This document shows, piece by piece, positions 4,666 to 20,171 of a stretch of DNA of 64,000 nt. The translations under genes and the position numbers were made by a program. This stretch comes from Rubrivivax sp. (GTDB lineage: Bacteria; Pseudomonadota; Gammaproteobacteria; Burkholderiales; Burkholderiaceae_C), in NCBI GenBank assembly GCA_027484825.1, contig JAIXSE010000016.1:186001-250000 (forward strand). Direction: 5' to 3'. Positions within the stretch are counted from its first letter, which is position 1, and every line of letters starts with the position of its first letter. Below the pieces are notes generated by a model. That model was given only the letters and a program-made list of their open reading frames with translations. It had not been told where the DNA came from and ran no database searches.

Positions 4666-8136
<3,471 letters not shown>

Positions 8137-8223: not shown

Positions 8224-11193
8224 ATGTTCCGTTTTCCTCGCAAGGCCCTTCTGGCCGCCGCACTCGTCGCCGCTTTTGGTGCCCACGCACAGACCGACTA
8301 CAACCAGCGCTTCCTGCAGCAATACAACAAGATCAAGAACCCTGCCAACGGCTACTTCAGCCCGGAAGGCGTGCCCTACCACTCGGTGGAGACCTTGATC
8401 GTGGAGGCGCCGGACCACGGCCATGAGACCACGTCCGAGGCCTACAGCTTCTGGATCTGGATGGAGGCCCAGTACGGCCGCGTCACCGGCGACTGGGGCC
8501 CGCTGGATGCAGCCTGGGCCAACATGGAGAAGTACATCATCCCCGCGCCTGCGGACCAGCCCACCAACAGCTTCTACAACGCCAGCAAGCCGGCTTCGTA
8601 TGCCGGCGAATATGCGCTGCCGAAGAACTATCCGTCGCCGCTGGAATTCGGCACGCCGGTGGGGCAGGACCCGATCGGCAATGAACTGGCCACCACCTAC
8701 GGCAGCCGGGACATCTACGGCATGCACTGGTTGATCGACGTGGACAACTGGTATGGCTATGGGCGCTGCGGCGACGGCGTGACCAAGCCGGCCTACATCA
8801 ACACCTTCCAGCGCGGCGCACAGGAATCGGTGTGGGAGACGATTCCGCATCCTTCCTGCGAGACCTTCAAATGGGGTCGCAATGGGGGCAATCAGGGCTT
8901 CCTGAGTCTCTTCACCGGCGATTCCAACTACGCCAAGCAATGGCGCTACACCAATGCGCCGGATGCGGACGGCCGCGCCATCCAGGCCATTTACTGGGCC
9001 AACATCTGGGCCACCGAGCAAGGCAAGGGCGCCCAGGTGGCCGACCTGGTGAAGAAGGCCACGAAGATGGGCGACTTCCTGCGCTATGCCATGTTCGACA
9101 AGTACTTCAAGCGGATCGGCAATTGCGTCGGCCCCACCACCTGCCCGGGCGGCAGCGGCGCGGCGGACAGCAATGGTCTGCGGGACAACCAGCACTATCT
9201 GATGTCCTGGTATTACGCCTGGGGCGGTGCGCTGGATTCGTCCGCCGGATGGGCCTGGCGCATCAGCTCCTCGCACAACCACTTCGGTTATCAGAACCCG
9301 ATGGTGGCCTGGACGCTGTCCACCCAGCCGGCCTTCAAGCCGCTGTCTCCCTCGGCCTCCGGCGATTGGGGCAAGAGCTATCAGCGCCAGATGGAGTTCT
9401 ACCGTTGGCTGCAATCGGCCGACGGCGCCATTGCCGGCGGCGCGACCAACAGCTGGAACGGCAACCACGAGCAGCCCCCCGCTGGCACGCCGACCTTCTA
9501 CGGCATGTTCTATGACGAGGCCCCGGTCTATCACGACCCGGCGTCCAACACCTGGTTCGGCTTCCAGGTGTGGTCCATGCAGCGCGTGGCGGAGCTCTAT
9601 TACGTGAGCAACGATGTGCAGGCCAAGGCCTTGCTGGACAAGTGGGTGGTCTGGGCCATCGCCAATACGCGCCTGCTGGCGGACGGGACCTATGAGATTC
9701 CCTCCACCCTGCAATGGTCCGGCAAGCCGGATACGTGGAATCCGGCCAGCCCTGGCAGCAATGCGAATCTGCGGGTGACGGTCACCGAGTTCACCAATGA
9801 TGTGGGCACAGCGGCGGCCTATGCCCGCACGCTGAGCTACTACGCGGCCAAGTCCGGCAATGCCGCGGCGAAGAACACCGCGCGGGAACTGCTGGACCGC
9901 ATGTGGGCGAAGTATCAGGACAGCAAGGGCCTGGCCGTGGCCGAGAAGCGTAAGGACTACCTGCGTTTTGACGACCCCTACAACGCCACCACCGGCGACG
10001 GTGTCTATGTGCCGTCCGGCTGGACCGGCACCAATGCGCAGGGCGCTGTCATTGATGCCAACTCGACCTTCCTGAACATCCGTCCCAAATATCAGCAGGA
10101 CCCGGATTTCGCCAAGCTGAGCGCCTATCTGGCGGGGGGCGCGGAGCCCACCTGGGTCTACCACCGCTTCTGGGCCCAGGCCGACATCGCGCTGGCGCAG
10201 GCGGACTACGGGCGACTGTTCCCGGCGACCGGCCCGTCCATCGTGGTGTCCAAGTCAACCCTGACCGTGCCGGAGGGGGGCTCGGCCAGCTTCGGTGTGT
10301 CGCTGTCGGAGAAGCCGTCTGCCAACGTCACGGTGGCCGTGGCCAAGGCGGCCGGTGGCGACGTCGATCTGGCGACCGCCACACCGGCCCTGGTCTTCAC
10401 GCCGGACAACTATGCAACGGCGCAAACCGTGAGCATCACCGCGGCCAAGGATGCTGACGCGCTCAACGGCTCGGCCACCTTCACCCTGAGTGCCTCCGGC
10501 CTGAACGGCGCCAGCGTGCTGGCGACCGAGCAAGATGCCGACATCGTCGTTCCGGTGGAACTGGTGGTCTCTGCCTCGGCGGTGTCCGTGCCGGAGACTG
10601 GCACCCAGAGCTTCACGGTGAAGCTTGCCTCGGCACCGACCGGCAACGTCACCGTTTCGGTGGCGCGAACCTCCGGGGACACGGACATCTCCGTCTCCAG
10701 CGGTGCGAGCCTGGTCTTCACCCCGGCCAACTGGAGCACCGCACAAACGGTGACGCTGGCAGCCGCCAAGGACGCCGATTCGATCAACGGTGTGGCCACG
10801 CTCAGCATCAGTGCGGCGAATGCCGCCACCCGGACGGTCACGGCCACGGAGATCGACAACGATGTGAAGACCTGCGCCGTGGTCTTTGACACCAGCAATG
10901 ACTGGGGCAGCGGTCAGGTGCCCAGCATCCGGCTGAGCAACCTGGGGACGACGCCGCTGAGCAACTGGTCGCTGACCTTCACCGAGAGCAATGCGTTCAC
11001 GCTGAGCAATTCGTGGAGCGGCACCTTCTCGGTCAATGGCCGGACCATCACCATCACCCCGGTGGCCTGGAACGGCACCATTGCGCCGAACAGCTCGGTG
11101 GATCTGGGCATGCAGATTGGCTACTCGGGCGCCAAGCCGGTGCCGACCGGGCTGACCTGGGTGGGTCAGAGCTGTGACATCACCGTGAAGTAA
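8224..11193 (+). CDS. GH48 exo-cellulase (reducing-end cellobiohydrolase) with Calx-beta-like modules and CBM2
   Basis: GH48 enzymes release cellobiose from chain ends and act in synergy with GH9 enzymes on crystalline cellulose. The 989-residue protein has a Sec signal peptide (about 1-22, no lipobox), so it is probably released. The GH48 domain covers about 23-665 and contains [13 protein letters not shown] with the conserved Glu72. Two repeated modules of about 100 residues follow ([15 protein letters not shown] and [15 protein letters not shown]), resembling Calx-beta/Ig-like linkers, then a CBM2 (about 890-989). AGGAG at 8213-8217 supports the ATG. It is probably cotranscribed with the GH9 gene. 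Confidence 0.93.
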
Positions 11194-16269: not shown

Positions 16270-17679
16270 ATGGAATCAACAACTTACACCCCCGCCGCCG
16301 ACGCATCCAAGGCAGCTCCCAAGATCGGTTTCGTGTCCCTGGGCTGCCCCAAGGCGCTCACCGACAGCGAACTCATCCTCACCCAGCTGCGCGCCGAGGG
16401 CTACGAAACCTCCAAGACCTTCGCTGGCGCCGACCTGGTGATCGTCAACACCTGCGGCTTCATCGATGACGCCGTCAAGGAAAGCCTGGACACCATCGGC
16501 GAAGCGCTGGCGGAAAACGGCAAGGTCATCGTCACCGGCTGCCTGGGCGCCAAGTCCGGTGCCAACACGGACAACCTCGTCCGTGAAATCCATCCCAGCG
16601 TGCTGGCCGTCACCGGCCCCCATGCCACCCAGGAAGTGATGGACGCGGTGCACACCCATGTGCCCAAGCCCCACGACCCCTTCATCGATCTGGTGCCCGA
16701 AGCCCGCGGCGTCGCCGGCATCAAGCTCACCCCCAAACACTACGCCTACCTGAAGATCAGCGAAGGCTGCAACCACCGCTGCAGCTTCTGCATCATCCCC
16801 AGCATGCGCGGCGACCTGGTGTCCCGTCCCATCGGCGATGTGCTGTCCGAGGCCAAGGCGCTGTTCGAATCCGGCGTCAAGGAATTGCTGGTCATCAGCC
16901 AGGACACCAGCGCCTACGGCGTGGATGTGAAGTACCGCACCGGTTTCTGGGACGGCAAGCCGGTCAAGACCCGCATGTTCGACCTGGTCGCGCAGCTCGG
17001 CGAGATTGCCAAGCCCTACGGCGCCTGGGTCCGCCTGCATTACGTCTATCCTTACCCGCACGTGGACGAAGTGCTGCCGATGATGGCCCAGGGCCTGATC
17101 CTTCCGTATCTGGACGTGCCCTTCCAGCATGCCCATCCGGACGTGCTCAAGCGCATGAAGCGCCCCGCCAACGGCGAGAAGAACCTGGAACGCATCCAGC
17201 GCTGGCGCGAGATCTGCCCGGAGCTGGTCATCCGTTCCACCTTCATCGCAGGCTTCCCCGGCGAGACCGAAGAAGAATTCCAGTACCTGCTGGACTTCAT
17301 GCGGGAAGCGCAGATTGACCGCGCCGGTTGCTTCGCTTATTCGCCGATTGACGGCGCCCCCGCCAACGCACTGCCCGGCGCGCTGCCCGACGAGGTCCGC
17401 GAGGAACGCCGTGCCCGCTTCATGGCGGTGGCGGAGGAAGTGTCCATTGCCAAGCTGCAGCGCCGCGTCGGTGCGACCATGCAGGTGATCGTCGACAGCG
17501 CCCCGGGCCTGGGACGCAAGGGTGGCGTCGGCCGCTCGTATGCCGACGCCCCGGAGATCGACGGCACCGTCCGTCTGCTGCCCCCGGAAAAGGCCAGCAA
17601 GCAGCTCAAGGTCGGTGAATTCACCCGCGCGCGCATCGTGGCCGTGGAAGGCCACGATCTGATCGCCTTGCCGATCTGA
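16270..17679 (+). CDS. rimO: Ribosomal protein S12 methylthiotransferase RimO
   Basis: Radical-SAM enzyme that adds a methylthio group to the conserved Asp (Asp89 in E. coli) of ribosomal protein S12. The 469-residue product shows the N-terminal MTTase domain with its three cluster cysteines (VSLGCPK, VNTCGF, TGCLG), the radical-SAM CxxxCxxC in [10 protein letters not shown], and a C-terminal TRAM domain ending [19 protein letters not shown] about six bases upstream supports the ATG. It is convergent with the next gene; CTGAGCC/GGCTCAG inverted arms at 17676-17699 could end transcription. Confidence 0.96.
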
Positions 17680-17718: not shown

Positions 17719-18804
17719 TCAGCGGCCGGGCGACGTCTCGGCCAACTGCAGCAGTTCCAGCATCGGGCCGAAGCGCATGGGTTCAGCCTCCAGTTGCCGG
17801 CTGGTCGCTTCGCGCAGGCGGCTGAGGGTTGCGTCGCCGAAGGCATCTTCGTCGTCGGCATCGACGGCCTTCAGCAGCGCCGTACGGTCCTCCGTACCCA
17901 AGGCGACCAGCGTCGCGCGGTAGAAGCAGTCGCCGCCGGTGGGGGTCGGCACCTTGCGGCCGTTGATCTGCGCGGCGTAGTGACCCTCTCGATGGTCCAG
18001 CAGCATCGTCACGGGCGTCTTGCCAGGCGCCTGCGCCGGCCCGAACTGATCCAGCAGGGTGCCGTCCATGTTGCGGATCTGCAGTGGGCGCCCCGCCGGC
18101 CATCCCGGCAGGGTGACGATGGCATGCGGCGCGATTTCTCCGCCCAATCCTTGCCAGGTATGCAGCGTGCGAATCTCCCGGGCCGCTTCCTGCAGCAGTT
18201 CGCGCTGGCGTGGCGTGGGCTGGGGGGAGCGCGGGGGCTTTGGCGGCGGGGAGTCAGCGCCTGTGTCGTCCCGCACCGACGGGGTTGGGATCTCCCGGTT
18301 GATGGTGTTGACCCAGCTCAGGAAACGCAGCCGCATGGCTTCATAGTGCGGCGTGCGCGGGACGTGGTCGGGATTGAGGTCCAGGGACGGCGACAGCGCG
18401 CAGAGCATCCTCCAGAGCTGCGGACTCTGGCAGACGGCCTCTCTCACCAGTCGGCCTTCGCTGGGAGACATGCTTCGCACCAGCTCCAGCAGGTCGGGCA
18501 GGACTTGCGGCACTTGATTCATCTCGTGGTCTGCGGCGATTTGGTCCCTCTGGACGGACAGGAACCAGAACGAGAACTCCATGATCAGGGCTTCGGTCAC
18601 GTGGCTCGCGAAGTCCGTCGGCACTGGCGCACGCGGATCGGCCGCCACGGCAGCGCCCAGTACCTTCGTCGTCATCTCAGACACTTTGAGTTGCAGCCGC
18701 TCCAGCTCCCGGCGTTCCATATCCATCAGTCGAAGGGTCTGGCCGTTCGCCAGCTCATAGACATGCGGAGGCGCTGCGAAGGCGCGCGCGAATTGGCTGT
18801 ACAT
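17719..18804 (-). CDS. Unknown protein with a C-terminal candidate circularly permuted OTU-like cysteine protease motif
   Basis: The 361-residue protein lacks a signal peptide. Residues 1-170 are helical with no recognised family. A Pro-rich linker (about 173-200) leads to a C-terminal domain. There, TPVTMLLDHREGHYAAQI (His275) is followed 18 residues later by GGDCFYRATLVAL (Cys293). In OTU deubiquitinases a GD/GNC motif with a following aromatic or Leu holds the nucleophile, and a late HY motif holds the His. Here His precedes Cys, as in the circularly permuted OTUs known from some bacteria. The start at 18804 is the only good ATG. It sits alone between rimO and metC. Function as an effector is inference. 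Confidence 0.5.
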   Translation of the reverse strand: MYSQFARAFAAPPHVYELANGQTLRLMDMERRELERLQLKVSEMTTKVLGAAVAADPRAPVPTDFASHVTEALIMEFSFWFLSVQRDQIAADHEMNQVPQVLPDLLELVRSMSPSEGRLVREAVCQSPQLWRMLCALSPSLDLNPDHVPRTPHYEAMRLRFLSWVNTINREIPTPSVRDDTGADSPPPKPPRSPQPTPRQRELLQEAAREIRTLHTWQGLGGEIAPHAIVTLPGWPAGRPLQIRNMDGTLLDQFGPAQAPGKTPVTMLLDHREGHYAAQINGRKVPTPTGGDCFYRATLVALGTEDRTALLKAVDADDEDAFGDATLSRLREATSRQLEAEPMRFGPMLELLQLAETSPGR

Positions 18805-18974
18805 GAGAGATCTCCTGCTTGCGTCAACAGTGACGGGTCTCGCTCAGTGGGTGTCATCTGACAGTTGATTCGCTTGACAACTGATCGGCGCCTGCGGGAG
18901 CGTCATGTCCTGCGTTAACCTCCGATGGCAGGGCCTTCAGCCGGTTGAAGGCATCGATTTATCAGGAGCACTTC

Positions 18975-20171
18975 TTGACCAAACGCGGCAAGTCCACCGA
19001 ACAGATCCACCACGATTACCAACCGCCCTCCGGCTGGGGCGCGGTGCCGGTGCCTGTCTACAAGGCTTCGACGGTGCTGTTTCCGGACACGGCGGCGCTG
19101 CACCGTCCGCGCTCCCGGGAGGCGGTGACCTATCGCTACGGGCTGCAGTGCACGCCGGGAAGCCTCACCCTGGCTGCACGTATCGCCACCCTGGAGCAAG
19201 CGACGCATTGCGTGCTGGTGCCCAGTGGCCTGGCAGCCATCACGCTCACCAGCATGGCGCTGCTCAAACCCGGCGACGAGGTGCTGCTGCCGGACAACGT
19301 GTATGGCCAGAATCGCTACATCAGCACCGGACTGCTGAGCCGCCTGGGCATCCACCACCGGTTCTACGACCCGCTCGATGCGGTGGCCTTCGAAGGCCTG
19401 CTGAGCGAGCGCACCCGGCTGGTCTGGCTGGAGGCGGCGGGCTCCATCACGATGGAGTTTCCGGATCTGATCGGCCTGCTTCAGGCCTGCAAGGCCCGCG
19501 GCATCACCACCGCCATGGACAACACCTGGGGGGCGGGCATGGCCTTCAACGCCTTCGAGCTGGCGCCCGGCCTGGGGGTGGACGTCTCCATGCAGGCGCT
19601 CACCAAGTTCGCGTCTGGCGGGGCGGATGTGCTGATGGGGGCGGTCTGCACCCGCGACGCCGCCTTGCATCGCCGTCTGGACGAGATGTATGAGTTCCTG
19701 GGCTACGGCGTCGGCCAGAACGATGTGGAAGCGGTGCTGCGCGGCTTGCCCAGCCTGCCGCTGCGTTATCGGGCCCAGGAGGCTGCCGCGCTGGATCTGG
19801 CGCGCTGGATGCAGCAGCAACCGTCCGTGGCCCGGGTGCTGCATCCGGCCCTGGCGGGCTCGCCCGGCCATGAATACTGGAAGGCGGTGAGCCAGGCGGG
19901 GTCCAGTTGCCTGTTCTCGGCGGTGTTCCAACCGGCCTACACCGCCGGGCAGGTGGATGCGTTCGTGGATGCCCTGCGGTGCTTTGGCATCGGCTACTCA
20001 TGGGCGGGCCCGATGAGTCTGGCGGTGCCGTATGACCTGACCCACAGCCGGTCCCTGCCGCTGCCCTGGACACCGCAGGAGGGCGGCACGCTGGTGCGCT
20101 TTGCCATCGGCCTGGAGGACGTGGAAGACCTGCGCGCGGATCTGGCGCAGGCCTTGTTGACGCTGGGCTGA
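18975..20171 (+). CDS. metC: Cystathionine beta-lyase (Cys/Met PLP-dependent enzyme)
   Basis: Cleaves cystathionine to homocysteine, pyruvate and ammonia in methionine synthesis. The 398-residue product has the family hallmarks LVPSGLAAIT, DNTWGAG and the PLP lysine in ALTKFASGG (Lys211, close to Lys210 of E. coli MetC). The start is a TTG at 18975 preceded by AGGAG with a six-base spacer; a TTG at 18945 is in frame but has no such site. Related gamma-lyases cannot be fully excluded from sequence. It is convergent with smpB. Confidence 0.88.
   Translation: MTKRGKSTEQIHHDYQPPSGWGAVPVPVYKASTVLFPDTAALHRPRSREAVTYRYGLQCTPGSLTLAARIATLEQATHCVLVPSGLAAITLTSMALLKPGDEVLLPDNVYGQNRYISTGLLSRLGIHHRFYDPLDAVAFEGLLSERTRLVWLEAAGSITMEFPDLIGLLQACKARGITTAMDNTWGAGMAFNAFELAPGLGVDVSMQALTKFASGGADVLMGAVCTRDAALHRRLDEMYEFLGYGVGQNDVEAVLRGLPSLPLRYRAQEAAALDLARWMQQQPSVARVLHPALAGSPGHEYWKAVSQAGSSCLFSAVFQPAYTAGQVDAFVDALRCFGIGYSWAGPMSLAVPYDLTHSRSLPLPWTPQEGGTLVRFAIGLEDVEDLRADLAQALLTLG

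What the first reader, a model, noticed from the sequence alone, without database searches (positions are those of the whole stretch)
17719..18804. Candidate circularly permuted OTU-like cysteine protease between rimO and metC
The C-terminus of an otherwise unknown 361-residue protein has an HY motif (GHY, His275) followed 18 residues later by GGDCFYRA (Cys293). In ordinary OTU enzymes the GDxC/GNC motif comes first and the HY late; permuted bacterial OTUs reverse this. A deubiquitinase-like protein in a bacterium that also carries an NLP and cellulases would suggest action on eukaryotic host ubiquitin, though a bacterial role is possible. No secretion signal is visible.
Basis: partly seen in the sequence, partly recalled or inferred. 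Interest (0 to 1): 0.75.

Follow-up and report, generated by a model that had tools for sequence, protein, structure and literature searches.

The report
Circularly permuted OTU deubiquitinase-like protein
An environmental bacterium carries a family of proteins that look like a rearranged form of the enzymes which cut ubiquitin, a tag of eukaryotic cells, so it may use them to interfere with such cells; neither the activity nor the export has been tested.

The parts
17719..18804 (-). gene for the 361-residue protein with the permuted OTU-like domain
   Evidence: ORF; homologues in 9 of 16 genomes of the genus, own genome included
17722..18219 (-). C-terminal permuted OTU-like domain, residues 196-361
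17980..17982 (-). His275, predicted catalytic base; Tyr276 follows (aromatic gatekeeper position)
17926..17928 (-). Cys293, predicted nucleophile at the start of a helix (293-301)
18154..18156 (-). Trp217, aligned with EschOTU Trp214, reported to secure the ubiquitin Gly-Gly
   Evidence: profile alignment, chain position converted by the construct's numbering; role of Trp214 from passages of PMC7396840; W in 20 of 20 Cys-bearing rows with a letter there
17812..17814 (-). Arg331 of the Leu-Arg pair in the second helix after the Cys helix
   Evidence: 21 of 21; helix 324-340
18292..18723 (-). N-terminal helical domain, residues 28-171, no assigned function
16270..17679 (+). rimO, conserved neighbour
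   Evidence: TIGR01125 534 bits, cut-off 357
18945..20171 (+). metC-like cystathionine beta-lyase gene, conserved neighbour
   Evidence: NF005456 457.9 bits, under its cut-off of 500

Best explanation
The C-terminal domain is a circularly permuted OTU-fold cysteine protease of the EschOTU kind: the half that carries the His strand comes first, and the half that carries the Cys helix and the following helices comes last. It most likely works as a deubiquitinase: Cys293 would attack the carbonyl of ubiquitin Gly76, His275 would activate the Cys, Trp217 and Tyr276 would hold and select the Gly-Gly tail. It most likely acts inside a eukaryotic partner (amoeba, plant, fungus or animal) after secretion, most plausibly through the type III apparatus that every carrier genome appears to encode. 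Shown: the domain, its family, the permuted order by sequence and predicted structure, and the joint retention or loss of His and Cys. Inferred: catalytic geometry, ubiquitin as substrate, secretion and host.
Confidence: 0.6

Rival explanations
1. Permuted OTU fold that binds ubiquitin or a ubiquitin-like partner but cleaves it poorly or not at all; the family is drifting towards pseudo-enzymes.
For: No acid or Asn at His+2 in 18 of 21 Cys-bearing members; 5 of 26 members have lost the Cys and, as aligned, the His; degenerate modules without the Cys occur in giant LRR proteins of another genus.
Against: The window copy keeps Cys, His, Tyr276, Trp217 and Arg331; Cys-His dyads are described among OTU-like enzymes (passage of PMC10318531).
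Confidence: 0.17
2. Toxin against other bacteria, or protease with a bacterial target, as in polymorphic toxins that carry OTU domains (recalled), delivered by T6SS or another route.
For: VipB of T6SS in 15 of 16 genomes; the unpermuted Saccharopolyspora relative sits in a frame of at least 1964 aa, open at the contig end, with a Gln_amidase toxin domain.
Against: In the window there is no room for an immunity gene beside it: gaps to the neighbours are 39 and 140 bases. F-box and probable SET fusions point to eukaryotes.
Confidence: 0.1
3. Housekeeping or defence peptidase of the bacterium itself, for example one acting on a bacterial ubiquitin-like protein.
For: A copy lies between rimO and the metC-like gene in all 9 carriers (the window); no export signal identified.
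Against: The site lacks it in 7 of 16 genomes; it diverges fast (the four nearest domains 51-61% identical, while rimO is 93-99% identical in the other 15 genomes). Ubiquitin-like, E1 or E2 genes were not searched for.
Confidence: 0.08
4. A CE-clan (YopJ/Ulp1-like) enzyme, which naturally has His before Cys, rather than a permuted OTU.
Confidence: 0.05

Closest known systems
EschOTU of Escherichia albertii (PDB 6w9s; PMC7396840, passages read)
   Different: 15-16% identity in the superpositions; His+2 is Ala instead of Asn; the His-Cys stretch is 5 residues shorter; many paralogues, a tandem array and members without Cys; an environmental genus.
Canonical OTU deubiquitinases (OTUD1, otubains, DUBA, viral OTUs; PF02338, PF10275)
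   Same: Same motifs: DGNC-like Cys loop, Leu-Arg in a following helix, His-aromatic.
   Different: Order of the two halves is swapped; window copy not recognised by Pfam.
LupA of Legionella (PF18242), described as a circular permutation near LotA (passage of PMC10318531)
   Same: Another permuted OTU-like bacterial deubiquitinase in print.
   Different: PF18242 was listed in none of the Pfam scans of family members.
YopJ/PopP2 family (clan CE)
   Same: His before Cys, bacterial effectors (recalled).

Membership tests
OTU-fold cysteine proteases | OTU fold | tested here: met
OTU-fold cysteine proteases | catalytic Cys in a GD/GN-C motif at a helix start and a His followed by an aromatic residue | tested here: met
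   Cys293 at helix 293-301, His275-Tyr276
OTU-fold cysteine proteases | third triad residue D/N/E two after His | tested here: not met
   Ala277; 3 of 21 Cys-bearing members have it. Not universal in the family: the A20 type places it elsewhere (PMC7396840, passages). An alternative acid could not be sought without coordinates
PF02338 as a Pfam family | score over the gathering cut-off | tested here: not met
   window protein: no hit; relative L062 25.6 v 23.3
EschOTU-type permuted OTU | His half before Cys half, collinear with EschOTU | tested here: met
EschOTU-type permuted OTU | Trp that secures ubiquitin Gly-Gly (Trp214) | tested here: met
   Trp217 aligned to it; 20 of 20 Cys-bearing rows with a letter there
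Deubiquitinases | aromatic gatekeeper after His (PMC7391069, passages) | tested here: met
   Tyr in 21 of 21
Deubiquitinases | cleavage of ubiquitin | not testable with these tools
   needs protein
Type III secreted effectors | genome encodes a non-flagellar T3SS | tested here: met
   HrcV over cut-off in 9 of 9 carriers, also in 5 of 7 non-carriers; secretin and T3SS ATPase in a second cluster of the own genome
Type III secreted effectors | T3SS-regulon promoter box (hrpII/PIP, form recalled) | tested here: not met
   none upstream of 29 genes; other genera use other boxes, so this is not a general requirement
Type III secreted effectors | secretion and translocation | not testable with these tools
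   needs experiment
Clan CE (YopJ/Ulp1) | CE fold | tested here: inconclusive

The most novel reading that the evidence does not exclude
Roseateles and a related Ottowia-like symbiont carry the main natural reservoir of permuted OTU deubiquitinases: a rapidly duplicating, type III-delivered effector family in which active enzymes and His/Cys-stripped decoys coexist, and which in the symbiont has been joined to F-box domains, so that one protein could both recruit a host SCF ligase and trim its ubiquitin chains.
Probability: 0.3. Interest if true: 0.82.

Novelty: new variant of a known kind. Interest (0 to 1): 0.64.

Why it matters
The 2020 survey of bacterial OTUs found this permuted arrangement in one protein only (PMC7396840, passages). 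Here is a second lineage with some thirty members, active-looking and apparently dead, a natural unpermuted relative and fusions to F-box and probable SET domains. That makes the history of the permutation testable and suggests that environmental bacteria not known to me as pathogens act on eukaryotic ubiquitin.

Tried and rejected
Single-protein scan of genome contigs found nothing; the broad alignment had no stretch conserved enough, so a 12-row subset was used. Plasmids, viral contigs, PHROGs and the viral fold library gave no relative. TTCG-N-TTCG boxes: none. Foldseek on the full protein listed DUBA first (E 1.0) and then unrelated, mostly helical proteins, so the domain was modelled alone. 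Whether T3SS presence tracks the gene was tested and does not discriminate (9 of 9 against 5 of 7). F-box domains were sought in three Roseateles genomes and not found (0 of 3). The independent-pair test on the His/Cys losses lacks power. Scans of 399 family genomes, 399 order genomes and 398 phylum genomes found the domain in 3, 1 and 5 genomes: the own genus (1 of 141 and 1 of 159 genera) and, weakly, one further genus (2 of 213 genera in all); they scored at most 9 first-look candidates per genome, so absences are soft. Rows left out of the His/Cys count: one N-terminal fragment, one partial Ottowia match without the site (L092), the canonical-order L065, and the degenerate modules in L113-L117.

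Searches of the paper library for a prior description: 'EschOTU', 2 papers; 'Roseateles' with 'type III secretion', 4; 'Mitsuaria' with 'type III secretion', 2; three of 'circularly permuted', OTU, deubiquitinase, effector, 1,411 papers of which 15 were listed; F-box, OTU, bacterial effector, deubiquitinase, 36 of which 10 were listed; Ottowia, endosymbiont, type III secretion, 658 of which 12 were listed; 'Roseateles depolymerans' with genome, 29 of which 8 were listed. None of the listings names this family; subscription papers and bioRxiv are not covered, and only passages of three papers were read.

Full report
What is there. The minus strand of 17719-18804 encodes 361 residues. Among the neighbours rimO, smpB and guaB pass their curated cut-offs; the cystathionine beta-lyase-like gene stays under those of the models listed. 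The window protein alone has no hit in Pfam, NCBIfam or PHROGs.

A family. A search of 100 related genomes, the own one included, found matches in 9, all of the window's genus, 1 of 85 genera. The genus is Roseateles, named through contigs whose lengths and places agree: R. depolymerans, R. terrae, Roseateles sp. YR242. A local search gave 24 proteins; one N-terminal fragment without the domain was dropped, leaving 23 with a shared C-terminal domain of about 165 residues. The own genome has five: the window copy and four proteins of 722-827 residues in a tandem array on another contig, beside a GGDEF gene and an SRP54-type GTPase gene that I read as flhF, some 12 kb from an FhiA/FlhA-like gene. 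All 9 carriers have a copy between rimO and the metC-like gene (8, the window); R. depolymerans has two in tandem there. In the other 7 genomes no family match was found and rimO and the metC-like gene are 53 to 720 bases apart in six, 1.67 kb in G004, where a GDSL lipase-like ORF lies. In G012 the copy at the site is cut by an IS21-family element.

Why OTU. The profile of the 23 domains searched against all PDB sequences gives EschOTU first (E 2.9e-4), then OTUD1 and the otubains. With three Ottowia members added, OTUD1 is 7.7e-5 and EschOTU 1.2e-4; weaker rows mix OTUs with chance matches (a Bcl2 inhibitor at 0.033, apolipoprotein A-I from 0.18). Pfam OTU is hit by 7 of 23 members at E up to 1, best 9.8e-5, not by the window member, and passes its cut-off in the Ottowia protein L062.

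Catalytic residues. Of 26 aligned domains 21 keep His and Cys, 5 have neither and none is mixed. The Cys is Ser or Ala in the five, the aligned His Lys, Arg, Gln or Leu. In one, L061:8650, the Lys is followed by His-Trp, so a shifted His may remain. The Ottowia genome gave nine matches: three already counted, one partial without the site, five new, scored by eye. Four of these keep both and one (L106) keeps His but has Ser in place of Cys. Total: 25 both, 5 neither, 1 mixed of 31; Fisher p 3.5e-5, or 4.8e-4 if L061:8650 is counted as keeping His, both uncorrected for kinship. On trees the losses need 4 changes or, with the two columns removed, 5; well-supported branches force 3 and 2. So the losses probably happened more than once, but a sign test on independent pairs has no power. 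Tyr276, the aromatic residue said to mark deubiquitinases (PMC7391069, passages), is in 21 of 21. The weak point is His+2: Ala277 here, D/E/N in 3 of 21, while Asn264 has a confirmed role in EschOTU. Dyads are described among OTU-like enzymes (PMC10318531, passage). Model coordinates are not released, so the His-Cys distance was not measured.

Verdict (my estimates). Permuted OTU fold: about 0.93. Active deubiquitinase: about 0.7. Active, secreted and acting on a eukaryotic partner: about 0.6. A new variant of a known kind.

Noticed in passing
L062 6462-9134, L063 9824-10984, L064 2-2341, L105 4972-7737, L106 1731-7088: An Ottowia-labelled MAG (SJ537) has nine matches to the permuted OTU-like domain, F-box and probable SET fusions, an LRR plus SopA-like ligase gene and a T3SS export gate: it looks like a host-associated bacterium with a ubiquitin-directed effector set.
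   Followed up: partly
L118 1763-7660 (residues 701-983), L119 746-8008 (residues 750-1027): Giant ToxA_N-LRR proteins of another genus (L119 with a NEL ligase domain) contain two degenerate stretches of this domain without the Cys (E 2.7e-16 and 1.1e-12; reversed sequences give at best 0.24). Genus unnamed; Pseudomonas is my guess.
   Followed up: partly
L065 1-5895: Saccharopolyspora elongata: the same motifs in canonical OTU order in a frame of at least 1964 aa with pentapeptide repeats and a Gln_amidase domain; a natural unpermuted relative.
   Followed up: partly
L027 9315-18585: Tandem array of four large paralogues with the domain at the C-terminus, one of them without His and Cys; the two scanned match no Pfam family.
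   Followed up: partly
L033 9963-12818 and L034 9314-12178: 951-954 aa proteins with the domain at the C-terminus and a different N-terminal region alike between the two, each preceded by an overlapping ORF of 225-231 aa that might be a chaperone.
   Followed up: no
L063 7281-10984: In the Ottowia MAG one permuted OTU gene lies beside guaB, which is also 3.5 kb from the gene in the window; chance or an old shared site.
   Followed up: no
L040 7192-11065: The G012 copy at the rimO-metC site is interrupted by an IS21-family element; the domain part remains as an open frame of 257 aa.
   Followed up: partly
4996-8136 and 8224-11193: Adjacent GH9 and GH48 cellulases with cellulose-binding domains in the window.
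   Followed up: no
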